DNA from: Oscillatoriaceae cyanobacterium M7585_C2015_266
GTDB taxonomy: Bacteria; Cyanobacteriota; Cyanobacteriia; Cyanobacteriales; Oscillatoriaceae
DNA: 64,000 bases
Direction of reading: 5' to 3'
Assembly: GCA_015295835.1 (NCBI GenBank)
Contig: DVEG01000004.1
Location: 186,001-250,000 of the forward strand
The notes below the pieces were generated by a model. The model was not told the DNA's origin. It did no database searches and saw only the letters and a program-made list of their open reading frames with translations. The position numbers were made by a program, and so were the translations under genes. Each line of letters begins with the position of its first letter. Position 1 is the stretch's first letter. Positions 12,654 to 36,110 of this stretch are shown here, piece by piece.

Positions 12654-15600
12654 ATGTCTATTATTTCCTCTGCCCCCTTTTCCCCCGAAGAAATAGCCGC
12701 TGAAGGTTTGACCACAGCAGAATATGAAGAAATAGTTAAGCGGTTGGGGCGTCATCCGAATAAAGCCGAATTGGGGATGTTCGGCGTCATGTGGAGCGAA
12801 CACTGCTGTTATAAAAATTCCCGCCCCCTACTCAAACAATTTCCAACCACAGGCGAGCGCATCCTCGTAGGTCCTGGAGAAAATGCCGGTGTAGTAGACT
12901 TAGGACATGGATTAAGATTAGCTTTCAAAATCGAATCTCACAACCACCCCTCAGCGATCGAACCATTCCAAGGAGCCGCAACCGGCGTCGGCGGCATCCT
13001 CCGCGACATCTTCACAATGGGCGCTCGTCCGATCGCTATTTTAAACTCCCTTCGCTTCGGCTCCCTCGACGAAGCCCGCACTCGTCGTATATTCACCGGC
13101 GTCGTCGATGGCATTGCCCACTACGGCAACTGCTTAATTCCTAGTGAAACACTAATCTGGCGTAACGAAAAAAATATATACTTTGATACAATCGGCAACT
13201 TTGTTGAATCTCACCTGCCCCCCGGTGAGACAACCGCTCAATTACCAGCTTCTACCTCAATCCAAACCCTTTCTTTTGCTCTCGACAGCCAAAAAAGCTG
13301 CTGGCAACCAGTGCGCCGTATCTTCAAGCGACGCGCTACAACCCTAATCACCATCCATACTACCTTGGGGCGAACCCTCACTATTACATCAGATCATCCC
13401 ACCTTAATATTAGAAAACGGAAAATGGCGCATCCGCCAAGGGCGCGCACTACAAATCGGCGATATAATTCCCATCCTAACTAATATCCCCTCCCTAGAAT
13501 CCCAGCAATCTAATAACATACCAGCTCTTGACTTACTTACCGCTTTCCCCCAAACCCATCACAGCGATATTTATGTAAAACTTCCATCAGAATCGCAGCC
13601 CACAGAAGCTATACTCATCACCTCAGAAGACACCTACACAAATAAAAACCTCTTACCCCTCAGCGATTTTCTCCGCTTGCAACCACTCCTCAACATCGCC
13701 CGCTGTGATATTTATCTCTGCCATAAAAACGACAAAACTAACTATCTCAAAGCAAATATCAATCCCGATGAAATCTTTGCCCGCTTGCTTGGCTATTATC
13801 TATCAAAAGGAGCCATTTTTGAAGAAAATAACACTTACAAAATTATTTTTACCTTCCCTCCGCAAGACAGCGAATACGTCAATGATGTTGTAGAAGGGCT
13901 GAAGAATATCGGATTACAACCCAGCCTCGAAAAACATGATTCCAGCATTACTATTTATACCAATTCATGGCTACTAGGCTATCTTTTAAAAGAAATATGG
14001 AAATGTAGCATATCTCCCAGCGAAAAAGCTTTTCCTGATTTTGTATTCCAATGGCATCGCTCTTTACAACGAGAAGCACTAAAAGGTTTATTGCTACAAA
14101 CCGAGTATGCCAAAATAACCTTTACCACAACCAGCAACAAACTTTTCGAGCAAACTGTTATACTTCTTCAAAATCAGGGAGCCATCCCACTCATCAGCAA
14201 AAAACATCAACAGCAGCATACCATTTGGCAGTTAGAAATTTGTAACGTTTACGAGCTGACAGCTATAACAAATGTTTTTGAAGAAAAAACCAATACCGAA
14301 TATTTACCAGAACAAATAATATCAAATGAATTAGCATTTGTCAAAATTAAAAGCATAGAAACAAAAAACGTTAACGAATGTGACGTTTATGATATAGAAG
14401 TAGACAATACTCACCTTTTTGCCACAACTTCTGGCATCATCACTCACAATTGTGTCGGCGTACCCACTGTAGGCGGAGAAGTATATTTCGAGCCCGCTTA
14501 TTCCGGCAATCCCCTCGTAAACGTTATGGCGTTGGGATTAATGGAAACTCCCGAAATTATTAAATCAGCAGCATCCGGAATAGGCAATCCCGTACTTTAT
14601 GTCGGTTCCACAACAGGGCGAGATGGTATGGGCGGCGCCAGTTTTGCTAGTGCCGAATTAACAGATAAATCTGTAGATGAGCGCCCCGCAGTACAAGTAG
14701 GAGATCCTTTCCTAGAAAAATCTTTAATTGAAGCTTGTTTAGAAGCTTTCAAAACTGGTGCAGTTGTCGCCGCCCAAGATATGGGAGCTGCTGGCATTAC
14801 TTGTTCAACTTCGGAAATGGCAGCTAAAGGTGGCGTCGGCATAGAATTGGATTTAGATAAAATTCCCACTAGAGAAAGTGGCATGGTGCCATATGAATAC
14901 CTCCTCTCTGAATCTCAAGAGCGAATGTTATTTGTCGCTCAAAAAGGGCGTGAACAAGAATTAATTAATATTTTCCACCGTTGGGGATTGCACGCAGTAG
15001 TTGCAGGCACTGTTATTGCTGATCCGGTTGTACGTATTCTCTTTAAGGGCGAAATAGCGGCAGAAATTCCTGCAAATGCCTTAGCAGAAAATACGCCTAT
15101 TTATTATCGCGAAATATTGAAAGAGCCGCCAGAATATGCTGTAAAAGCTTGGGAATGGAAGGTAGAGCAGTTGCCGAATTGTGATGTCAATGGAATTGAA
15201 ATTAAAGGTAGTCACAAAACTTGGAATGAAATTTTGTTGACGCTGTTGGATACTCCGTCGCTTGCTTCTAAAGAGTGGGTGTTTCGGCAATATGATCATC
15301 AAGTGCAAAATAATACGGTGGTTTTACCTGGTAGTGCAGATGCGGCAGTAATAAGATTACGTCCAGTAGAATTTACAGTTAATAATGAATTTAAAAGTGG
15401 GGTGGCGGCAACGGTTGATTGTAATTCTCGTTATGTTTATTTGGATCCTTATGAGGGAGCTAAGGCAGTGGTTGCAGAAGCGGCGCGCAATCTTAGTTGT
15501 GTGGGGGCAGAACCTCTAGCGGTGACGGATAATCTTAATTTTGGTAATCCTGAGAAAGCGATTGGTTATTGGCAGTTGGCGTCAGCTTGTCGTGGCATTG

Positions 15601-16316
15601 CTGAAGCTTGTAGGGAATTTAATACGCCAGTGACGGGCGGGAATGTGTCGCTGTACAATGAAACTCTGGATTCTACAGGGCAGCCGACGCCTATTTATCC
15701 TACTCCTGTGGTAGGAATGGTTGGGTTAATTGCTGATTTGAATTATATCTGTCGGCAAGGTTGGCAGAATCCGGGGGATGAGATTTATTTGTTGGGATTG
15801 CAAGTACCTGATGCTGTTAGGTTGACGCTGGGGGGTTCTGAGTATTTGGCGAGGATTCACGATATTGTTGCAGGTAAGCCGCCAATGGTGGATTTTGAGT
15901 TGGAAAGACGGGTGCAGATGGCTTGTCGTCAAGGAATTCGTAAGGGTTGGGTGCGCTCGGCTCATGATTGTGCTGAAGGGGGTTTAGCAATCGCATTAGC
16001 AGAATCTTGTATTAGCAGCAACCTCGGTGCTGAGATTCAACTACCGGAAAAACAAGGAAGTCGCCCGGATGAACTGCTGTTTGCAGAGGGAGGCGCCCGG
16101 ATTGTGGTTTCTGTCTCGCCGGCAATGGTGGCAGCTTGGGAAGCATATCTGCGTCAGCAGTTGGGAACAGAAAATTGGAGCAAAATCGGTAAAGTTGGAG
16201 TTTTTGATAGCTTTTTGCGGGTTTTTACGGTTACTCGTCAGCCTTTGATTGAGGTAAAGATTGCTGATATGAGATATTGTTGGCAAACTGCGATCGAACG
16301 CCGTTTATCTGTATGA
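12654..16316 (+). CDS. purL: Phosphoribosylformylglycinamidine synthase subunit PurL, intein-containing precursor
   Basis: 1220-residue precursor. Removing an internal 440-residue intein leaves 780 residues, the normal size of the small-type PurL that works with PurS and PurQ. The enzyme makes formylglycinamidine ribonucleotide from FGAR, ATP and glutamine-derived ammonia in de novo purine synthesis. The N-extein shows [17 protein letters not shown] and [21 protein letters not shown]. The C-extein carries [13 protein letters not shown] and [12 protein letters not shown]. The insertion lies inside the conserved [16 protein letters not shown] block (residue 160 of the precursor), where a non-spliced product would be inactive. 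purF follows on the same strand. purS and purQ are not in the window. Confidence 0.96.
13131..14450 (+). mobile_element. Intein within purL, with degenerate LAGLIDADG homing endonuclease
   Basis: In-frame 440-residue insertion, precursor residues 160-599. Block A is [10 protein letters not shown] with the nucleophilic Cys160. Block B is [10 protein letters not shown] with T245 and H248 in TxxH. Blocks F/G are [20 protein letters not shown] and GIITHN, with the penultimate His and terminal Asn599, followed by the native Cys600. All splicing residues are present, so self-excision is expected. The middle contains two LAGLIDADG-like motifs 98 residues apart: LLGYYLSKG (378-386) and LKGLLLQTE (476-484). 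The acidic catalytic position is Lys385 and Thr483 respectively, so the endonuclease looks inactive. Confidence 0.93.
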
Positions 16317-22568: not shown

Positions 22569-23144
22569 ATGTTAAAGCCCCTAATGGTGAACGGATTGCC
22601 GCTGAGAAAGTCACTCCCCCACTGGTTGATTCTGACACTGGGCTTGAGCATGGTGGGAGCCGTGGCAGGCTGTAGCCCGAATCAGCCATTGGGGCCGCAG
22701 TCCATCAATAGCCGCTATGCAGACGAAAAACCAGCAATTAGCGGCAACGGTCGCTATTTGGCGTTTGTCTCGAATCGAGAAGGTAGCCGTAATATCTTAC
22801 TCTATGATTTGGAAAGACAGCAGTTTGTCGATTTGCCGTATTTGAACCGCCGAGACGCGCTCGCCGAAACTCCCAGCATCAGTAACACCGCCCGTTATAT
22901 AGTCTACATTGCAAGCGATTTCGGCAGACCAGAAGTAGAACTCTATGATCGCGTCACCAAAACTACCCAAGTCCTTACCAGAGGATATCGCGGCTGGGTA
23001 CGCAATCCCAGCATCAGTCCCGACGGTCGCTATGTCGCTTTTGAAAGTGGAAGGCGTGGACAGTGGGACATCGAAGTCATCGACCGGGGACCGACAATTG
23101 AATTGGACAAAAGGGATGGCCCCTCTCCCAGTTCTCAGGAGTGA
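22569..23144 (+). CDS. TolB-like beta-propeller lipoprotein (first of pair)
   Basis: 191 residues. The N-terminal hydrophobic segment ends in AVAGCSPN, a lipobox, so it is predicted to be an exported lipoprotein. Three PD40/TolB-type strands follow: ISGNGRYLAFVSNREGSRNI, ISNTARYIVYIASDFG and ISPDGRYVAFESGRRGQW. That is only half of a six-bladed TolB propeller. The next gene encodes a paralogue with three matching motifs and the two are 14-56 bp apart, depending on the start. No Tol-Pal partner genes lie nearby. Function unknown. Confidence 0.8.
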   Translation: MLKPLMVNGLPLRKSLPHWLILTLGLSMVGAVAGCSPNQPLGPQSINSRYADEKPAISGNGRYLAFVSNREGSRNILLYDLERQQFVDLPYLNRRDALAETPSISNTARYIVYIASDFGRPEVELYDRVTKTTQVLTRGYRGWVRNPSISPDGRYVAFESGRRGQWDIEVIDRGPTIELDKRDGPSPSSQE

Positions 23145-23200
23145 GTTTTAGATTTTGAGTGAATTATCCTCCTCTTGTCTTGTGTCTTGATTTTCTACCT

Positions 23201-23725
23201 GTGAAAAGGTTAATCTTTCTGCCTGCGATCGCTATTTTCAGCTTATTAAGTAGCTGTACCGGCTACCCTCGCCTGCTTAGCTTTCCCTTCGATCCAGCAG
23301 GGCGCGGCTTAAACAGTCCAGCAGGTGAGATTACCCCTCAAATTTCAGGTCGCTATATCGTCTTTGTCTCTGATCGAAAAGGGCGTCAAGATATTTATCT
23401 TTATGATGGTGTCGCTCGCCGTCTAATTGACTTACCGGGATTAAATTCCCTTGATATGATTGCCTCTCATCCCGCCGTCTCCGAAGATGGACGTTTCATC
23501 GTCTTTGCCGGCAGCCGTCAGGGGCGAATCGATATATACCTTTACAACCGTGAACTCCGCCTCGTCCGTAATCTTACGGAAAATCTGCAAGCAGAAGTTC
23601 GCAATCCCACTATCAGCGCCGATGGCAGCCGCATCGCTTTTGAAGCCGGGGCACAAGGGCAGTGGAATATTAAAGTTATCGATAGTTCGGGGCAGCCTTT
23701 AAATGTACCCGATATTCCGCGCTGA
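23201..23725 (+). CDS. TolB-like beta-propeller lipoprotein (second of pair)
   Basis: 174 residues from a GTG at 23201, which yields an ideal signal peptide VKRLIFLPAIAIFSLLSSC with lipid-modified Cys; a GTG at 23159 in the same frame would add 14 residues. Three PD40-type repeats (ISGRYIVFVSDRKGRQDIYL, VSEDGRFIVFAGSRQGRIDI, ISADGSRIAFEAGAQGQW) parallel those of the preceding gene one to one. Tandem duplication is evident. The two proteins may associate to complete a propeller, but this is inference. Confidence 0.78.
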   Translation: MKRLIFLPAIAIFSLLSSCTGYPRLLSFPFDPAGRGLNSPAGEITPQISGRYIVFVSDRKGRQDIYLYDGVARRLIDLPGLNSLDMIASHPAVSEDGRFIVFAGSRQGRIDIYLYNRELRLVRNLTENLQAEVRNPTISADGSRIAFEAGAQGQWNIKVIDSSGQPLNVPDIPR

Positions 23726-23752: not shown

Positions 23753-25393
23753 CTATAATAAAATAGGTGGTAATCCTACATCTTTTGGATTGACAAACTT
23801 ACCTTTAAAACTTACCGCTTTTTCTTGAATCGTTCTGGCTTCTGCCACAGCCCGTCGCAGTTCCGCAATTTCTATATTATTTTCAATCCCCCCCAGAAGA
23901 TAAACAATTAATTTTGCCGCTAAATCCCGTCGAGCCACGATTACCCGTTTTTTATTGGGATCGTACAAAATTCCATACCACAGAGATTGAGGATATTCTA
24001 TACCACTGAATCCCCCATCTATATCGTATTTGCGAAGTTTCTTAAAAATAGCTTCCAATGAAAACTTCTTCTTAAAAACAAGAATTCCCAAAGCTTGAGC
24101 AAAAGCAATTTGTCCAACGGGTCGGAAAAGTAAATTACCTTCGCCTCCGCCCTTTTCAAAATTGAAACGCCGCAATTGGAAAGTTTCCTCTCCGTATTCA
24201 AGTCTCTCATAGCTGGGCAGGGTAGACAAATAATCGAAAAACTGCTTTAATGCTTCATATCCTTCTTCTAATTCATCATCCTCGGGGCGCAGAGGAATTA
24301 AACCTTTTTGTCGAGAAGATTTCCAGTGAGGGAATTTATATTCTAAGTAGCGCTCAGATATTTCTTTGAGAGCCTGAAGCGTAGTCAAAACCGTTGATTT
24401 AGCAGCTACTGTCGCGCTATCCCAATTGACGCGAGGATTACGTCCGTTTTTATCTTTGAATAGGGGGTGAGTAACAGCAATTTTTCTGGCAATAATAGAA
24501 AATCCGTTATCTTCATCCAGTTTTGCTAACTGACCTATTGTCAAGGGAACAGCCATTAAGTTAACGTGAACGAAGATGGAGCGGATTCGTCGCCGCGCTT
24601 CTCCGTGAGTTTCTCCAGCCACCACGGCTGATATAAATTCTATGCCTATTTTTTCCTGTGCTAAATTTTGCAGGTATGTAAGCTCAACGTGGTACTCCCG
24701 TCGCAGATCTTCAACTGTTATTATCGCTCCTGAAGGTTTTTTATCTTTTTTATAACGCTGAAGTTTGCCAGTTTTTATCAACTCCATCAAACCCAGCACG
24801 CCCATGAGGCGGTGTTGCCCGTCTAAAGCAAAAATCTTTACATCATCTGAAAGCTCTAATAAACCTATATTACCGTCTTTATCCAGTGCTAGAAAATTAG
24901 CTGCAGATTTAATGGCTCGTCCCCATTTATCCCATTCTGAAGCTTTGGGATCGTCTACCCAGGGTTTACTGACAACTACCAGTATTGGCGGAAATTTGTG
25001 TGTTTTCCGCACCGCTAAATATTGTGCTAAATGTGCTTGACGTGACCAATCCAAGGGTCGCTGCTGAATTTCTTCTATGCTCTGAGCGTCGATTTGAATA
25101 TTTTTAGTTTCTAGGTTAAATTTTTGACTGAAAAGTGGTAATTCCGAGGCAAAACTAACGCGGTTTGCAAGCCACTCTAGTGTGACTGAGCCAATGTACG
25201 CTTCGCTGCCACCCATATTTGTTTTTTGAACAAATATATAATTATTTTTCGTCAGATATTTGTCCAAAAATAACGCCAATGCTTCCTTTTCCTGCATGTC
25301 TTTGTTCTGACGCTGGCTGTCAATTTTAGCCAATAGGTGGCTCTGGCGGCGGTTCATGAGCTGTTTTATGAAAATTTTGCTGGTTTTTTCCAC
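23753..25393 (-). CDS. dndB: DndB-like DGQHR-domain protein, DNA phosphorothioation regulator
   Basis: 546 residues from a GTG at 25393; an ATG 12 codons in is an alternative. The family hallmark DGQHR is at residues 191-195 (FALDGQHRLMGVL). DndB proteins repress the dnd operon and influence the pattern of phosphorothioate modification. Position supports the call: it is divergent from dndC, sharing a 196-bp spacer. It is longer than classic DndB, with extra sequence at the C-terminus (about residues 400-546). A more distant DGQHR protein cannot be excluded from sequence alone, but the neighbourhood makes DndB by far the best reading. Confidence 0.88.
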   Translation of the reverse strand: MEKTSKIFIKQLMNRRQSHLLAKIDSQRQNKDMQEKEALALFLDKYLTKNNYIFVQKTNMGGSEAYIGSVTLEWLANRVSFASELPLFSQKFNLETKNIQIDAQSIEEIQQRPLDWSRQAHLAQYLAVRKTHKFPPILVVVSKPWVDDPKASEWDKWGRAIKSAANFLALDKDGNIGLLELSDDVKIFALDGQHRLMGVLGLMELIKTGKLQRYKKDKKPSGAIITVEDLRREYHVELTYLQNLAQEKIGIEFISAVVAGETHGEARRRIRSIFVHVNLMAVPLTIGQLAKLDEDNGFSIIARKIAVTHPLFKDKNGRNPRVNWDSATVAAKSTVLTTLQALKEISERYLEYKFPHWKSSRQKGLIPLRPEDDELEEGYEALKQFFDYLSTLPSYERLEYGEETFQLRRFNFEKGGGEGNLLFRPVGQIAFAQALGILVFKKKFSLEAIFKKLRKYDIDGGFSGIEYPQSLWYGILYDPNKKRVIVARRDLAAKLIVYLLGGIENNIEIAELRRAVAEARTIQEKAVSFKGKFVNPKDVGLPPILL

Positions 25394-25589
25394 CCTACTA
25401 TTCTATAAAATCTCTGTCAACTAGATTTTTAAAAACTTAAATATGTGCAATACTAAGATAGTAACGTTGCCTGCCTCGTCAAGGAGGTAATATCATAAAA
25501 CAATCAAGTTGTCAAGTGCTTACTTGCTTTAGCGAGTATTAGCAAATACAAAAATTAAAATAACCTTGATAGGGGATAGGGGTGAGAAA
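25394..25589. promoter_or_regulatory. Divergent dndB/dndC promoter region with candidate operator
   Basis: This spacer must hold both promoters. A compact repeat cluster lies at 25504-25526: direct repeats TCAAGT at 25504-25509 and 25512-25517, then an inverted ACTTG at 25522-25526 that makes CAAGT-GCTT-ACTTG. It is a candidate DndB binding site, by position only. GGGGTGAG lies just before the dndC ATG. Confidence 0.45.
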
Positions 25590-27155
25590 ATGAACGAATT
25601 TCAACAAATGTCTCTTTTCCCGGCACGTACAGTTGCCGAGCTAGTAGAAGATATAAAAATGTTAACAAAAGAAATCCAAGAGTTATACTGTCAAGATGAT
25701 ATTCCATTTGTGATTGGCTGGAGTGGGGGAAAAGATAGCTCTGCTGTTTTGCAGCTTGTTTGGAATGCTATTTCAGAGCTGCCGGTGGAAAAACGAACTA
25801 AAAAAATTCACGTTATTACTACAGACACGCTGGTAGAGAATCCTATTGTTTCTGCTTGGGTGCGCAATTCTTTAGAAAAAATGAAAGTAGCGGCGCGGGA
25901 ACAACAAATGCCAATAGAACCGCATTTACTAAAGCCAGATATTAAAGAAACTTTCTGGGTGTGTTTAATTGGCAAAGGCTACCCTGCCCCGCGCAATCAG
26001 TTTCGCTGGTGTACACCACGACTGAAAATTAATCCTTCAAACCATTTTATCCGGGAGGTGGTTCGCGCCAATGGCGAAACGATTTTGATTTTGGGAAATC
26101 GCAAGGCGGAAAGTACGAAACGGGCTGCTACAATGGAGAAGCATCAAAAAAATCGCCTGCGCGATCGCCTAAGTCCAAATGCTAGTTTGCCTAACTCTCT
26201 AGTCTATACCCCGATAGAAGATTGGCGAAATGATGAAGTTTGGATTTACTTAAATCAATGGCCTAATCCCTGGGGAAGTAGTAATAAAGATTTGTTTGTC
26301 ATGTATCGAGGTGCAACTGCAGACAATGAATGCCCTCTAGTAGTGGACACTTCAACTCCGAGCTGCGGCGATTCTCGATTTGGTTGTTGGGTTTGCACTA
26401 TGGTAAATAAAGACAAATCGATGGAGGCGATGATTCAAAATGATGAAGAAAAAGAATGGATGCTGCCTCTGCTTGAGATCCGCAATGAGTTGGATGTAGA
26501 AGACGATCGCGATAGAAGAGATTTCCGCCGCATTTGGGGGGATGTTCAACTTTTTGAGCGCAATATAAATGGCAAAAGTTCAGTTGAGCCTATTCCTGGC
26601 CCCTATACGAAAAAATGGCGGGAGATTTGGCTGGAAAAAGTCCTCACGGCTCAAAAAAAAATTCGTGAAAATGGGCCAGAAAGCATGCGGAATATTACTC
26701 TGATTACTAGAGAGGAGCTGAGTGAAATTCGTCGCATTTGGCTGGAAGAAAAACACGAATTTGACGACAGTTTGCCGAAAATTTATAAAAAAGTAACTGG
26801 CGAAGAGTTTCAAGATCCCCGCCTCGGCGCTGGCAAAAGTCTACTGGGCACCGATGAATGGGCGGTGTTGGAAGAAATTTGTGGCGATGACGCTATGCAT
26901 TTAGAATTGATGGCAAATCTGTTAGATACAGAACGGCAGTTTTATATGAAAGCTCGTCGGGCAGGGATTTATGAAAATCTGGAGAAATGTTTTGAAATAA
27001 GTTCGCGATCGCGCGAAGAAGCAATCCGCAACGCCCACTACAAACGCGACTTGAAAGCTGCAGCAGTTGAAGGCGACATTGACAAAGTCAAGCAGCTCAC
27101 TTGGGCTAGTTTGAAATTCCCTACACTAGATTCAGGCGAGGGTAATGAAGCCTAG
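25590..27155 (+). CDS. dndC: DNA phosphorothioation protein DndC (PAPS reductase-like)
   Basis: 521 residues from the ATG at 25590, preceded by GGGGTGAG; an in-frame TTG at 25566 is less likely. DndC is an ATP-pyrophosphatase/PAPS reductase-like enzyme that activates DNA for sulfur insertion. The PP-loop SGGKDS is at residues 45-50. Cysteines at 248, 259, 266 and 269 (CPLVV, CGDSRFGCWVC) fit the [4Fe-4S] ligands of the family. FRWCTPRLK and the GNRKAEST segment are also typical. It is first in dndC-dndD-dndE, with 31- and 20-bp gaps. No dndA lies here, so sulfur would come from a general cysteine desulfurase. Confidence 0.95.
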   Translation: MNEFQQMSLFPARTVAELVEDIKMLTKEIQELYCQDDIPFVIGWSGGKDSSAVLQLVWNAISELPVEKRTKKIHVITTDTLVENPIVSAWVRNSLEKMKVAAREQQMPIEPHLLKPDIKETFWVCLIGKGYPAPRNQFRWCTPRLKINPSNHFIREVVRANGETILILGNRKAESTKRAATMEKHQKNRLRDRLSPNASLPNSLVYTPIEDWRNDEVWIYLNQWPNPWGSSNKDLFVMYRGATADNECPLVVDTSTPSCGDSRFGCWVCTMVNKDKSMEAMIQNDEEKEWMLPLLEIRNELDVEDDRDRRDFRRIWGDVQLFERNINGKSSVEPIPGPYTKKWREIWLEKVLTAQKKIRENGPESMRNITLITREELSEIRRIWLEEKHEFDDSLPKIYKKVTGEEFQDPRLGAGKSLLGTDEWAVLEEICGDDAMHLELMANLLDTERQFYMKARRAGIYENLEKCFEISSRSREEAIRNAHYKRDLKAAAVEGDIDKVKQLTWASLKFPTLDSGEGNEA

Positions 27156-27186
27156 AAAGCTGAATTTCTAAATATTCCTCCAATTT

Positions 27187-29160
27187 ATGAAATTTCTTGA
27201 ACTCGTATTGCAAAATTTTGGCCCCTACGCCGGGCGTCAAATTATTAACCTACGTACAGAATATGACAGCCAAAATCGCCCAATTATCTTGGTAGGCGGC
27301 ATGAATGGCGGTGGTAAAACTACCTTAATGGATGCAATTCGTCTTGCCTTGTATGGGCAGCGCGCCCAATGCTCAACAAGGGGCAATTTGGGCTATGGTG
27401 AATTTCTTTCACAATGCGTGAATCGCTACACTCCTCCTCTGGAAGAAACGCGCATCGAATTGCTATTTCAGCACATACAAGATAGTCAAATGGTAGAATA
27501 CCGATTAGTGCGGCGGTGGACGAAAAACCCTAAAGATGGAAAAGATATTTTAAAAGTATTGGAAGGAGAATTTTGGCTGTCTGAACTGGATAAAATTTGG
27601 GATGAATATATCGAGGATTTATTACCATTGGGAATTTCTAATTTGTTTTTGTTTGATGGAGAACAAGTGAAAGAACTCGCAGAAGTTGATACGCCTCCTC
27701 CCTTTGTAATCGAGGCGATTCAATCGCTTCTGGGATTGGAACTAGCTGAACGTTTGGCAATTGATTTGGATATTCTCGTCAGCCGCAAGCGAAAACAAAT
27801 AGCTGATACAAAAGAAATTTTAAGTTTAGAGGAAATTGAACAGAAGCTCAACCATAAAAAAGATGCATACGAAGCAGCTAAACAAGAATTAGATTGCTTG
27901 GAAAGAAAATTAAATGAAGCTTATAACAGACAGCAAATAGCGGCGAGCAAGTTTATTTATGAAGGGGGTAAAATTGCGGCGGAACGCAGTCAGCTAGATA
28001 AAAAATTGCAAAACTTAAAAGCAGAGGCGGAAATTACTCGGCAAACGTTGGTAGAAATTTCTGCTGATGTTTTGCCTTTGGCGTTGATTTTTCCACTTTT
28101 AAAAGAAGCGCGCTCGCGTGGGGAAGAGGAAACTCGTATTTTACAAGCAAAAATAGTAAAAGAGGTTTTACAAGAGCGTGATCGCCGATTTTTGGATTGG
28201 CTTGCTAAACTCAATTTGCCTGCCAAAAAAATCCAGCAGATTAAAAATTTTTTAGAGCAGGATAATCAGCATCTAGAGGAGGGAGATAAAGATTTATGTT
28301 TAAATGCCGATGCCGAAGCCTTAAATCAGTTAGCAATTCTGCTAACTCACCAATTGCCTAATCAGATAAAATTAGCTCGCGAAAAATTAGAGAAGCTGCA
28401 AAATATAGAGGAAGAAATTGTTGCCACCGAGCGACAATTAGCTGTCGCCGCACCGCCGGAAGTTTACCGACAATTAGAGGAGGCAGTGGAGCAGGCGCAA
28501 AATGAAGTCGCTTTGTGTAAAAGTGCTTACGAAATGGGGAAACGTCGCTGTGAAGAGTTAGAGCGTGAAATAAACAAAATTAAAAAGGAATTAGAAAAGT
28601 ACAGTAACCAAAATATTGCTCGCCAGAATGCGGAACACATAATCAAAGCGGCGGCTAAAGTGAAAGAAACGCTTTCAATTTTTCGGCAAAAACTGACGGA
28701 GAGAAAGCTGAATAAATTAGAAAATGAAGTAGCGGAGTGTTTTCGCTATTTGCTGCACAAGTCAGATTTAGTGCATAGGGTGGTTATCGATGCTAAAAGT
28801 TTCAGTATTTCTCTATACGATTTTGAAGGGAAACCAGTGCCTAAACACAGACTTTCGGCGGGGGAAAAACAATTGTTAGCGATCGCATTTTTGTGGGGAT
28901 TAGCCAGGGTTTCAGGGCGCAACTTGCCGGTGGCAATCGATACACCTCTAGGGCGCTTGGATTCTTCCCACCGTCAGAATATCATTGAGCGCTATTTTCC
29001 CTCGGCATCCCATCAGGTAATTTTGCTCTCTACAGATACCGAAATCGGAAAAATTGAAGTAGACAAATTGCGAAAATTAGATGCGATCGCCCGCGAATAT
29101 CTGTTAGAATACAATGCAAACAAACGTCAAACCACTGTCAAACCTGGGTATTTTTGGTAA
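27187..29160 (+). CDS. dndD: DNA phosphorothioation protein DndD (SMC-like ATPase)
   Basis: 657 residues. The Walker A loop GGMNGGGKTT is at residues 37-46, and the C-terminus carries the ABC/SMC signature LSAGEKQLLAIAFLWGLA followed by the Walker B region VAIDTPLGRLDSSHR. Between them lies a long charged region (about 200-530) with coiled-coil character. DndD couples ATP hydrolysis to structural change of DNA during phosphorothioation, acting with DndC and DndE. It follows dndC with a 31-bp gap and precedes dndE by 20 bp. Typical length. Confidence 0.95.
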   Translation: MKFLELVLQNFGPYAGRQIINLRTEYDSQNRPIILVGGMNGGGKTTLMDAIRLALYGQRAQCSTRGNLGYGEFLSQCVNRYTPPLEETRIELLFQHIQDSQMVEYRLVRRWTKNPKDGKDILKVLEGEFWLSELDKIWDEYIEDLLPLGISNLFLFDGEQVKELAEVDTPPPFVIEAIQSLLGLELAERLAIDLDILVSRKRKQIADTKEILSLEEIEQKLNHKKDAYEAAKQELDCLERKLNEAYNRQQIAASKFIYEGGKIAAERSQLDKKLQNLKAEAEITRQTLVEISADVLPLALIFPLLKEARSRGEEETRILQAKIVKEVLQERDRRFLDWLAKLNLPAKKIQQIKNFLEQDNQHLEEGDKDLCLNADAEALNQLAILLTHQLPNQIKLAREKLEKLQNIEEEIVATERQLAVAAPPEVYRQLEEAVEQAQNEVALCKSAYEMGKRRCEELEREINKIKKELEKYSNQNIARQNAEHIIKAAAKVKETLSIFRQKLTERKLNKLENEVAECFRYLLHKSDLVHRVVIDAKSFSISLYDFEGKPVPKHRLSAGEKQLLAIAFLWGLARVSGRNLPVAIDTPLGRLDSSHRQNIIERYFPSASHQVILLSTDTEIGKIEVDKLRKLDAIAREYLLEYNANKRQTTVKPGYFW

Positions 29161-29180
29161 AATAAAACAAAACTGTAATT

Positions 29181-29579
29181 ATGGAACCCCCACTAGAGCG
29201 GATAAAACTCTCTCAAACAGCCAAAGAACAACTCACTAAATTAAAGCGTATCACCAAAATCGAACAATGGAACATACTATGCCGCTGGGCACTTTGTCGC
29301 TCTTTAGCCGAACCAAATTCCCCCTCACCCGTGCCCATACCTGCTGACAGTAACGTAGAGATGAATTGGCGCACCTTTGGGGGCGAAATATCCGATATTC
29401 TAATAATTGCTTTAAAACAGCGCTCTCTAAACGACGGATTGGCAACTGATCAAGAGACGCTAGCCACACAATTTCGTTTACATTTGCATCGCGGCATTGC
29501 CTATTTAGCAGGAGATACGAATATTAAGAAGATTGAAGATTTGATAGCGCTCGCCCTCTCCTCTCAAACCACTAAATAG
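29181..29579 (+). CDS. dndE: DNA phosphorothioation protein DndE
   Basis: 132 residues beginning MEPPLERIKLSQTAKEQLTKLKR. The segments WNILCRWALCRSLAEP and NWRTFGGEISDI match DndE, a small tetrameric protein that binds nicked DNA and completes the Dnd modification complex. It is last in the operon. A 16-bp palindrome (ACCACT-AAAT-AGTGGT, 29568-29583) overlaps the stop codon. No dndFGH restriction genes follow: the next gene is an unrelated DUF1499 protein. Confidence 0.93.
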   Translation: MEPPLERIKLSQTAKEQLTKLKRITKIEQWNILCRWALCRSLAEPNSPSPVPIPADSNVEMNWRTFGGEISDILIIALKQRSLNDGLATDQETLATQFRLHLHRGIAYLAGDTNIKKIEDLIALALSSQTTK

Positions 29580-29652: not shown

Positions 29653-30171
29653 ATGTCAAAGTTATCATTAAAAATTCTTACCTTGTTCGTTTCCTTCCTA
29701 TTTGCTGCCGCCTATTATTTCTGGCAATCCAGCCCAGCACTAGCCAATTCTTACCCTATTGAGATTGCAAGCCTATTCTCATTTTCGGGAAAGCAACCAA
29801 CAAATCTGGGAGTGAAAGAAGGAAAACTTGCCGAGTGCCCGCCATCGCCCAACTGCGTTTCCAGTCAAAGTACAGATGCAATACACAAAATCGCACCTTT
29901 GACATATAATTCCCAGCCTGAAGAAGCTTTTTCTAAACTGAAAGAAGTTATCCAAAGTCAGGAAAACGCTAAAATTGTTTCAGAAACAAAGAATTACCTT
30001 TACGCTCAGTTTACAAGCAAGATTATGGGATTTGTAGATGACGTAGAGTTTTATCTAGATAAAGACGCAGGCGTGATTCAAGTTCGTTCAGCTTCGCGTC
30101 TGGGAGAGTCTGACTTGGGAGTGAACCGGAAACGAATTGAGAAAATCAGAAGTCAACTGTCTATGTACTAG
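29653..30171 (+). CDS. DUF1499 family exported protein
   Basis: 172 residues. An N-terminal hydrophobic segment (about 5-25) ends near SPALANS, suggesting a signal peptide. The mature part has the DUF1499 pattern: GKLAECPPSPNCVSSQS near residue 55, YLYAQFTSKIMGFVDDVEFYLD and IQVRSASRLGESDLGVNRKRIE. DUF1499 proteins occur in plants and bacteria, but their function is unknown to me. Transcribed separately from dndE (73-bp gap) and convergent with the UbiH-like gene. Confidence 0.85.
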   Translation: MSKLSLKILTLFVSFLFAAAYYFWQSSPALANSYPIEIASLFSFSGKQPTNLGVKEGKLAECPPSPNCVSSQSTDAIHKIAPLTYNSQPEEAFSKLKEVIQSQENAKIVSETKNYLYAQFTSKIMGFVDDVEFYLDKDAGVIQVRSASRLGESDLGVNRKRIEKIRSQLSMY

Positions 30172-35282: not shown

Positions 35283-36110
35283 TCAAGATTTTGCGTTCAA
35301 TAATTCCGGAGTCAACACCTGATTTAGCTTACCGCTGCGATAGCCTTCTAAGTCTAGGGTGACGTATATAAAGCCGTATTCTTGAAAAGTTTGCACTAAT
35401 TTTGGCAAGTCAGTTGTAAAAATAAATTCCTTAATTTGTTCTGGTGGCAATTCAATTCGTGCTGTGTTGCCTTCAGAGCGAACGCGCAGGTTTTTTAACC
35501 CTAAATTGCGCAAATATCTTTCAGCTCGACCGACTCTTTGCAGTTTGGCAATGGTAATTTCTTCCCCGTAAGGAAAACGAGAACTGAGACATGGTTGTGC
35601 GGGCTTGTCCCACCAGGGTAAGCCGAGTTGTTTAGCTAATTGTCGAACTTCGGCTTTGCTGATTGCGGCTTCGGCTAAAGGCGATCGCACGCCTCGTTCT
35701 TTTGCCGCCTGAATTCCGGGTCTGTAGTCGTGCAAGTCGTCAGCATTGACGCCATCAACAATATAGGGATATCCCCGCTCTAAAGCGAGGGGTTTGAGGG
35801 TATCATGCAATTCACTTTTGCAAAAATAACAGCGATTGACGGGGTTAGCGGTGTAATTGGGATTTGCCATTTCGTGGGTTTCGACTAATTCGTGGGCAAT
35901 CCCTATTTCAGCCGCTTGTATACGGGCTTCTTCTAAATCTTCTGGAAGCAGTGAAGGAGAAACGGCGGTGACGGCTAAGGCGCGCTCGCCTAGTACGTCG
36001 TGAGCTATTTTAGCAACTAAGGTGCTGTCAATTCCGCCGGAATAGGCGATTAATGCCCGTTCCATCTCGGCAAAAATGGCTTGTACTTTTTCTAGTTTTT
36101 GGCTCAGCAT
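35283..36110 (-). CDS. larE: ATP-dependent sacrificial sulfur transferase LarE
   Basis: 275 residues. The PP-loop SGGIDS is at residues 24-29 and the family segment NRCYFCKSELHDTL is near 92-105. Cys174 in QPCLSSRFPYGEEIT aligns with the sacrificial cysteine of Lactobacillus LarE, which donates its sulfur when making the nickel-pincer nucleotide of lactate racemase. No larA, larB or larC lies in the window, so the sulfur acceptor here is unknown. Transcribed after fraE on the same strand with a 56-bp gap, but ended by its own terminator. Confidence 0.9.
   Translation of the reverse strand: MLSQKLEKVQAIFAEMERALIAYSGGIDSTLVAKIAHDVLGERALAVTAVSPSLLPEDLEEARIQAAEIGIAHELVETHEMANPNYTANPVNRCYFCKSELHDTLKPLALERGYPYIVDGVNADDLHDYRPGIQAAKERGVRSPLAEAAISKAEVRQLAKQLGLPWWDKPAQPCLSSRFPYGEEITIAKLQRVGRAERYLRNLGLKNLRVRSEGNTARIELPPEQIKEFIFTTDLPKLVQTFQEYGFIYVTLDLEGYRSGKLNQVLTPELLNAKS

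What the first reader, a model, noticed from the sequence alone, without database searches (positions are those of the whole stretch)
23753..29579. Compact DNA phosphorothioation locus: dndB divergent from dndCDE, no dndA or dndFGH
All four genes are recognisable from motifs and spacing. The restriction partners dndFGH are absent from both flanks, and the cysteine desulfurase dndA is not encoded, so sulfur would come from a general desulfurase. This suggests a modification-only system with an epigenetic or redox role. A filamentous cyanobacterium with phosphorothioated DNA is a useful case. No mobile element borders the locus.
Basis: partly seen in the sequence, partly recalled or inferred. 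Interest (0 to 1): 0.65.

Follow-up and report, generated by a model that had tools for sequence, protein, structure and literature searches.

The report
Half of a split DNA-sulfur defence system
The genes that put sulfur into this cyanobacterium's DNA are real, but they are probably not a stand-alone modification kit: a matching candidate anti-virus half sits about 111 kb away on the same contig, and in related species the two halves usually lie side by side.

Summary
Two points fail. (1) The divergent "dndB" (23753-25393) is a DGQHR-domain paralogue: 17.8 bits against the 328-bit DndB cut-off, 176.9 bits for DGQHR. True dndB lies in the locus of six relatives; a PF14072 search of this genome rings only on the DGQHR gene. 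(2) It is not modification-only. DndF and DndH families were not found (controls silent), but a complete pbeA-pbeB-pbeC-pbeD-type module lies at C7:94010-98355, ending 111 kb before the dnd genes. In same-family genomes the halves form one locus. Of 291 genomes of the order, 226 have dndC; 219 of these have pbeA, 222 have pbeD. Best reading: the modification half of a split DndCDE-PbeABCD phosphorothioation (PT) defence system, with PbeA reduced to its helicase half and a probable AGTTTTTAAAAACT operator. No function was assayed. The kind is known; the surprise is that "solitary" PT loci of Cyanobacteriales, cited for an antioxidant origin, mostly have a candidate restriction partner.

The parts
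23753..25393 (-). DGQHR-domain protein (546 aa), DndB paralogue; probable regulator or accessory protein of the dnd genes
   Evidence: TIGR03187 176.9 bits (cut-off 58.85), PF14072 53.8 (29.1), TIGR03233 DndB only 17.8 (328); homologue in 165 of 291 genomes of the order and within 10 kb of dndC in 104 of the 104 genomes that had both printed matches on one contig
25424..25437 (.). candidate operator, GATTTTTAAAAACT, 2 mismatches from the palindrome AGTTTTTAAAAACT found upstream of DGQHR genes
   Evidence: at most 1 mismatch in 23 of 58 distinct upstream regions vs 2 of 1160 shuffled; at most 2 mismatches upstream of DGQHR in 13 of 15 (0.13 expected), upstream of pbeA in 0 of 14. The window copy is one of 4 near-matches to the 12-base core in 64 kb (0.64 expected), so by itself it is weak
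25566..27155 (+). dndC, PP-loop sulfurtransferase (true start possibly the in-frame ATG at 25590)
   Evidence: TIGR03183 720.3 bits; SGGKDS motif, and Cys149, 256, 267, 274, 277 conserved in 20 of 20 sequences
27187..29160 (+). dndD, ABC/SMC-like ATPase of the DndD clade (no CxC motif)
   Evidence: TIGR03185 681.9 bits over cut-off; no CxC motif, unlike the second ABC ATPase of this genome
29181..29579 (+). dndE, DNA-binding partner of DndD
   Evidence: TIGR03184 133.4, PF08870 153.1 bits, both over cut-off
29653..30171 (+). DUF1499 gene, synteny marker: it also follows the joined pbe-dnd locus in two same-family genomes
   Evidence: PF07386 154.8 bits; G104:C4:627417 and G087:C8:427957, about 4.2 kb from the dndC start; no match in the other 5 genomes of the family

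Best explanation
The locus is the modification half of a DndCDE-PbeABCD-type phosphorothioation defence system that has been split in this lineage. DndC, DndD and DndE, with sulfur from a general cysteine desulfurase, put phosphorothioates into the host DNA. The divergently transcribed DGQHR protein, and/or a factor acting at the AGTTTTTAAAAACT-like site between it and dndC, tunes expression. The partner module sits 111 kb upstream (C7:94010-98355): PbeA (SF2 helicase), PbeB (57 aa), PbeC (CxC-type ABC ATPase) and PbeD (dnd_assoc_4, by position the DndE-like subunit). It acts in trans and stops DNA that lacks the mark. Shown here: gene identities, presence of both halves, contiguity of the halves in relatives, co-occurrence. 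Inferred: that the joined state is ancestral, the PT chemistry, restriction of unmodified DNA, and a probably non-cutting mode, because PbeA lacks the N-terminal part of other PbeA proteins.
For: TIGR04095 at C7:94052-95389, 664.9 bits vs cut-off 600. Next to it PbeC (PADLOC PbeC 1102 bits; CIC motif at residue 339; TIGR03185 173.4, below the 245.85 cut-off) and PbeD (TIGR04062 190.7 vs 74.25). A small ORF lies between pbeA and pbeC in 13 of 13 loci examined, overlapping the pbeC start in 12; gene order and sizes fit the published PbeABCD (PbeB 66 aa, PbeD 152 aa in PMC6459918, passages seen). Joined order pbeA-pbeC-pbeD-DGQHR-dndC-dndD in 11 of 19 hand-chosen relatives' loci, 5 of them from the same family; by coordinates the sixth same-family genome that has the genes (G047) is joined too. 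radC flanks the pbe half in this genome and in those 5; DUF1499 flanks the dnd half here and in 2 of the 5. dndC genomes with pbeA: 219 of 226; without dndC: 24 of 65 (Fisher p 9e-26, not corrected for phylogeny). With pbeD: 222 of 226. pbeD within 10 kb of dndC in 60 of the 70 genomes with both printed matches on one contig.
Against: No function was measured. pbeA occurs without dndC in 24 of 291 genomes and pbeD without dndC in 15, so the pbe half need not depend on PT. The candidate operator is absent upstream of pbeA (0 of 14), so the halves do not seem to share this regulation; the window's own copy has 2 mismatches and three other near-matches exist in the window. PbeA here aligns only to positions 243-681 of 682 of the best PADLOC PbeA profile and no HxK(x4)D motif was seen in 14 of 14 homologues, so it may not restrict as other PbeA proteins do. 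PbeB and PbeD are named by position and size; PbeD gave no PADLOC or Pfam hit. PADLOC also ranks PbeC above DndD for the window's dndD (942.5 vs 784.4 bits). The two halves may have drifted apart in function after the split.
Confidence: 0.77

Rival explanations
1. One reading: a solitary, modification-only PT system with an epigenetic or redox (antioxidant) role; the distant pbe module is unrelated or pairs with another modification.
For: DndF and DndH families not found (controls silent). The halves are 111 kb apart here. The pbe-type genes occur without dndC in 24 (pbeA) and 15 (pbeD) of 291 genomes. PMC8569181 and PMC12707154 (passages seen) favour an antioxidant origin in Cyanobacteria. 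No shared candidate operator upstream of pbeA.
Against: The two halves form one locus in most genomes where linkage could be scored (pbeD-dndC within 10 kb in 60 of 70), are joined in the 6 same-family genomes found to have them, and 218 of 226 dndC genomes have both pbeA and pbeD.
Confidence: 0.13
2. A degenerate, non-functional remnant: this small genome (3.98 Mb against 6.4-8.6 Mb for the six same-family genomes at 95-99% completeness) has lost dndB and the linked HNH nuclease, and the system no longer works.
For: HNH homologue not found in this genome (no positive control); true dndB not found; split locus; operator copy with 2 mismatches.
Against: The core genes are open full-length frames over their family cut-offs and/or with intact motifs: DndC Cys residues, PbeA Walker A / DEAH / motif VI, PbeC CxC. 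Loci without dndB-type and HNH genes in the 20 kb fetched also occur in relatives, for example L081 and L084.
Confidence: 0.07
3. The separation of the two halves is an assembly error, and the real chromosome carries one joined locus. (Not exclusive of the best explanation.)
For: Draft genome in 35 contigs; same-family relatives are joined.
Against: Both halves lie inside one 312-kb contig in the same order and orientation. pbeA-dndC separations over 50 kb on one contig also occur in 14 other genomes; pbeD-dndC separations over 50 kb in 5 others. If true it would strengthen, not weaken, the best explanation.
Confidence: 0.07

Closest known systems
DndCDEA-PbeABCD of haloarchaea (PMC6459918)
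   Same: DndC/D/E plus a pbeA-pbeB-pbeC-pbeD cassette of the same order and similar small-gene sizes; no dndFGH found
   Different: Halves 111 kb apart; no dndA over cut-off; PbeA 463 aa aligns only to the C-terminal two thirds of the best PADLOC PbeA profile; DGQHR gene divergent from dndC; cyanobacterial
Tandem DndD- and CxC-ABC-ATPase-centred systems (PMC10853773)
   Same: DndD-clade ATPase with DndE next to a CxC-clade ATPase with its DndE cognate, SF2 helicase and small protein; reported in that paper for 936 bacterial taxa
   Different: That paper describes PbeA as an HKD nuclease fused to an SF2 helicase; the 14 PbeA homologues examined here (463-537 aa) show no HxK(x4)D motif; here the pair is split
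TIGR04095 dnd_restrict_1 and TIGR04062 dnd_assoc_4 (named in PMC3226654)
   Same: Both families are met over cut-off; that paper already called TIGR04095 apparently a second PT-dependent restriction enzyme
   Different: In these results they are the PbeA and PbeD positions of one module and present in 243 and 237 of 291 genomes of the order; TIGR04095 also occurs in 24 of 65 genomes without dndC
Solitary dndBCDE of Cyanobacteria (PMC8569181)
   Same: Cyanobacterial, no dndFGH found
   Different: Not solitary: pbeA and pbeD families present in 218 of 226 dndC genomes of the order
DndBCDE-DndFGH (Salmonella, E. coli)
   Same: DndCDE core; DndB-family protein; palindromic operator known for Salmonella DndB (TACGN10CGTA, PMC4507180)
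   Different: DndF and DndH families not found; different palindrome; true DndB not found

Membership tests
DndCDE phosphorothioation machinery | DndC, DndD and DndE homologues over curated cut-offs, co-directional | tested here: met
DndCDE phosphorothioation machinery | DndC PP-loop and conserved cysteines intact | tested here: met
   SGGKDS; Cys149, 256, 267, 274, 277 in 20 of 20 sequences; the Fe-S role of such a cysteine (C280) is from PMC11662687 (passage), its match to these positions is recall
DndCDE phosphorothioation machinery | phosphorothioate in genomic DNA | not testable with these tools
   needs LC-MS or iodine cleavage
DndB (TIGR03233) | score over the 328-bit equivalog cut-off | tested here: not met
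   17.8 bits; it is a DGQHR-domain paralogue
DndA (TIGR03235) | score over the 480-bit equivalog cut-off anywhere in the genome | tested here: not met
   best 431.9 bits
DndFGH restriction module | DndF, DndG, DndH in the genome | tested here: inconclusive
   DndF none, controls silent; DndH family over cut-off in 0 of 291 genomes, controls silent; DndG not searched
PbeABCD | SF2 helicase PbeA | tested here: met
   PADLOC PbeA 534.9 bits, but only positions 243-681 of 682; TIGR04095 665.2 bits
PbeABCD | PbeA N-terminal nuclease (HKD) domain, as described in PMC10853773 (PMC6459918 reports no PD-(D/E)XK nuclease motif) | tested here: not met
   0 of 14 homologues show HxK(x4)D; lengths 463-537 aa against PADLOC PbeA profiles of 626-722
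PbeABCD | small PbeB between pbeA and pbeC | tested here: met
   conserved ORF, 57 aa here, in 13 of 13 loci; assigned by position and size, not by homology to archaeal PbeB
PbeABCD | PbeC, CxC-clade ABC ATPase | tested here: met
   1102 bits; CxC at 339
PbeABCD | PbeD / DndE cognate | tested here: inconclusive
   TIGR04062 190.7 bits over cut-off; no PADLOC or Pfam hit at E 0.01; called PbeD by position and size
PbeABCD | PT-dependent virus resistance | not testable with these tools
   needs phage or plasmid assay

The most novel reading that the evidence does not exclude
The 'solitary' PT-modification loci of Cyanobacteriales are, with few exceptions, halves of DndCDE-PbeABCD defence systems with a PbeA reduced to its helicase half, a near-core component of the order. 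The published argument that dnd arose as an antioxidant because cyanobacteria lack PT restriction genes would then rest on having looked for dndFGH. In this genome the two halves work in trans from sites 111 kb apart, under a DGQHR-linked AGTTTTTAAAAACT operator that controls the modification half alone.
Probability: 0.5. Interest if true: 0.72.

Novelty: new variant of a known kind. Interest (0 to 1): 0.52.

Why it matters
A paper (PMC8569181) and a review (PMC12707154) connect the lack of dndFGH, or the frequency of solo PT modifiers, in cyanobacteria with an antioxidant origin of DNA phosphorothioation. If most of these genomes carry a PbeABCD-type partner, that support weakens, and the question becomes testable in a culturable cyanobacterium: delete pbe or dnd and challenge with phage or unmodified plasmid. 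It also bears on the dispute over whether Pbe systems cut DNA, because the cyanobacterial PbeA proteins examined show no HKD nuclease motif.

Tried and rejected
Modification-only reading: rejected after TIGR04095 was found in the genome and its neighbours proved to be a pbe-type module. PADLOC labels the window's DndD as PbeC first (942.5 bits vs 784.4 for DndD); I rejected that label because NCBIfam DndD is met over its cut-off, the protein has no CxC motif, and a second, CxC-bearing ATPase exists. I first took TIGR04095 as a lone PT restriction enzyme; the context showed that it holds the PbeA position.

Cluster F6, which I first called dndB throughout, is mixed: of its 12 proteins, 6 pass the DndB cut-off (L073, L074, L075:7075, L078, L079:11350, L091), one is short at 273.7 bits (L090:7764), four are a further DGQHR paralogue of 391-393 aa at 54-57 bits, and one (L090:8840) was not scanned. 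Junction repeats: no shared word of 20, 16, 13 or 12 bases in direct orientation between the two junction regions, and one inverted match at 13 and two at 12; the mechanism of the split stays open. Structure of the DGQHR protein: mean pLDDT 62.2, pTM 0.45, too poor to compare, so no fold search was run. PT-binding HNH relative: none in this genome, but without a positive control in that call. dnd-associated methyltransferase TIGR04096 is present on another contig (C18:348600-351104); its link to the system is unknown.

Limits of the counts: linkage distances use only the rows printed (150, 149 and 150 rows for the first three; the fourth was not counted), so lower-scoring matches are left out. 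They and the presence lists were transcribed by hand; the presence lists agree with the printed totals (165, 243, 226, 237). Most of the 20 stretches were chosen because the genes lay near each other, so joined order there (11 of 19 relatives) is not a frequency. The palindrome was first seen by eye in 7 upstream regions that are also among the 58 counted; without these 7 it is 18 of 51 with at most 1 mismatch. The 58 are non-identical but related.
Full report
What was checked. The window is G000:C7:186001-250000 of a 3.98-Mb, 35-contig draft genome, 98.5% complete. Gaps of 31 and 20 bases between them fit one operon. DndC keeps SGGKDS and Cys149, 256, 267, 274 and 277, conserved in 20 of 20 homologues.

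The divergent gene. It scores 176.9 bits for the DGQHR domain (cut-off 58.85), but 17.8 against 328 for the DndB equivalog. True DndB (403-466 bits) is encoded in the locus of six of the 19 relatives fetched, three of them of the same family (L073, L074, L075); four related proteins of 391-393 aa are a further paralogue at 54-57 bits. In this genome the PF14072 family, which scores one true DndB at 449.6 bits, rings only on the DGQHR gene, so true dndB appears to be missing. The DGQHR gene lies within 10 kb of dndC in all 104 genomes that had both printed matches on one contig (110 had both rows). It is therefore a genuine part of the locus, only misnamed.

A partner is present. TIGR04095 (dnd_restrict_1) is found at C7:94052-95389, 664.9 bits against a cut-off of 600. 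The 20 kb around it (L072 = C7:84001-104000) reads: radC (C7:93075-93806, -), SF2 helicase of 463 aa (94010-95401, +), a 57-aa ORF (95592-95765), an ABC ATPase of 690 aa with a CIC motif (95762-97834), and TIGR04062 dnd_assoc_4 of 153 aa (97894-98355). PADLOC names the helicase PbeA (534.9 bits) and the ATPase PbeC (1102 bits). The small ORF is conserved in 13 of 13 loci between pbeA and pbeC and overlaps the pbeC start in 12. This is the order and size pattern of pbeABCD, where PbeB has 66 and PbeD 152 aa (PMC6459918, passages). The names PbeB and PbeD rest on position and size: the TIGR04062 protein gave no PADLOC or Pfam hit.

The two halves are one locus in relatives. Of 19 relatives' loci fetched (most chosen by hand because the genes were near each other), 11 have pbeA-pbeC-pbeD-DGQHR-dndC-dndD in this order inside 20 kb; 5 of them come from the same family (L073-L077), and the coordinates of a sixth same-family genome, G047, agree. 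The eighth genome of the family, G136, is 66% complete and gave no match to any of the four. radC stands before pbeA in those five and here. DUF1499 follows the dnd genes here and in G087 and G104; it has no match in the other five genomes of the family. Here order and orientation are kept, but about 111 kb lies between pbeD and the DGQHR gene. The 23.7 kb of this interval inside the window hold housekeeping genes such as purL, purF and accC (purL checked, the other names from reading the translations). No direct repeat marks the junctions. That the joined state is ancestral is an inference from this.

How general it is. In the same 291 genomes of the order, dndC is in 226, TIGR04095 in 243 at E 1e-100 (239 over cut-off), TIGR04062 in 237 (236 over cut-off), and the DGQHR protein in 165. 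dndC and pbeA: both 219, dndC only 7, pbeA only 24, neither 41. dndC and pbeD: both 222, dndC only 4, pbeD only 15, neither 50; 218 have all three, and 3 dndC genomes have neither pbe family. Kinship is not corrected for. All 165 genomes with the DGQHR protein have TIGR04095; 9 of them lack a dndC match. From printed rows, pbeD lies within 10 kb of dndC in 60 of 70 and more than 50 kb away in 6, this genome included; pbeA lies within 20 kb of dndC in 34 of 52 and more than 50 kb away in 15. In 8 of those 15, pbeD stayed beside dndC and pbeA alone is distant; in one (G199) all three lie apart; in this genome pbeA and pbeD stay together, away from dnd; for the other 5, pbeD was not printed or, in G179, lies on another contig.

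A candidate operator. Between the DGQHR gene and dndC lies GATTTTTAAAAACT (25424-25437). Upstream of DGQHR genes the palindrome AGTTTTTAAAAACT recurs with at most 1 mismatch in 23 of 58 distinct regions, against 2 of 1160 shuffles (18 of 51 without the seven regions in which I first saw it). By gene family, at most 2 mismatches upstream: DGQHR 13 of 15, the mixed dndB cluster 4 of 12 (three true dndB and the short L090 one), HNH 2 of 6, pbeA 0 of 14, pbeD 0 of 16; dndC is 6 of 20, all of them genomes where dndC shares its upstream region with the DGQHR gene. The window copy alone is weak: four near-matches to the 12-base core occur in 64 kb, 0.64 expected. In Salmonella, DndB binds TACGN10CGTA palindromes to control its own gene and dndCDE (PMC4507180, passages), so the arrangement is analogous while the sequence differs. 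Which protein binds here is unknown.

Mechanism. Best supported: DndCDE marks self DNA, with sulfur from one of the desulfurases found; PbeABCD, acting in trans, blocks DNA without the mark. In haloarchaea PbeABCD stops viral replication without cutting (PMC6459918, passages). PMC10853773 (passages) argues that PbeA carries an HKD nuclease. The 14 cyanobacterial PbeA proteins examined show no HxK(x4)D motif and are 463-537 aa long, against PADLOC profiles of 626-722, which favours a non-cutting mode or a nuclease from another gene. Relatives carry Uma2 and HNH genes in the locus; the HNH was not found in this genome (no positive control), and Uma2 was not searched there.

What is known. dnd in cyanobacteria without dndFGH, and the antioxidant-origin idea, are in print (PMC8569181, passages; taken up in PMC12707154, passages). 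A type III-like enzyme near dndBCDE in Microcoleus was noted in PMC8546630 (passages). Tandem DndD and CxC systems are described in PMC10853773. Searches for TIGR04095 (one paper, PMC3226654) and for PbeABCD with cyanobacteria (two reviews; I read passages of one) found no statement that the cyanobacterial partner is PbeABCD-like or that it is near-universal in the order; supplementary tables and the second review were not read.

Verdict. Ordinary genes of a known kind, a mis-assigned dndB, and a "modification-only" conclusion that does not stand. The comparative result is the useful part.

Noticed in passing
window 12654-16316: PurL of 1220 aa: the match to PurL is in two stretches with a long insert (ending near residue 598) that weakly resembles intein-containing proteins and ends in THNC, so probably an intein.
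   Followed up: partly
L130:7505-10177 (G000:C18): dnd-associated methyltransferase family TIGR04096 as an 890-aa protein that matches the family in three stretches, as if duplicated, among unrelated genes on another contig.
   Followed up: partly
291 genomes of the order: TIGR04095, named a PT restriction enzyme, occurs in 24 of 65 genomes without dndC; the curated name may claim too much.
   Followed up: partly
L075:5852-7027, L076:10311-11492, L077:9766-10947, L079:12462-13643: A further DGQHR paralogue of 391-393 aa in the dnd locus, far below the DndB cut-off (54-57 of 328 bits); role unknown.
   Followed up: partly
window 22569-23725: Two tandem short TolB-like beta-propeller genes on the breakpoint side of the DGQHR gene.
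   Followed up: no
window 35283-36110: LarE-type sacrificial sulfur transferase 5.7 kb from the dnd genes; no sign that it belongs to them.
   Followed up: no
L073:12755-13816, L073:8478-9140: A relative carries an HNH protein resembling PT-DNA-binding restriction enzymes (114.5 bits, below the 180-bit cut-off) and a Uma2 nuclease inside the joined locus.
   Followed up: partly
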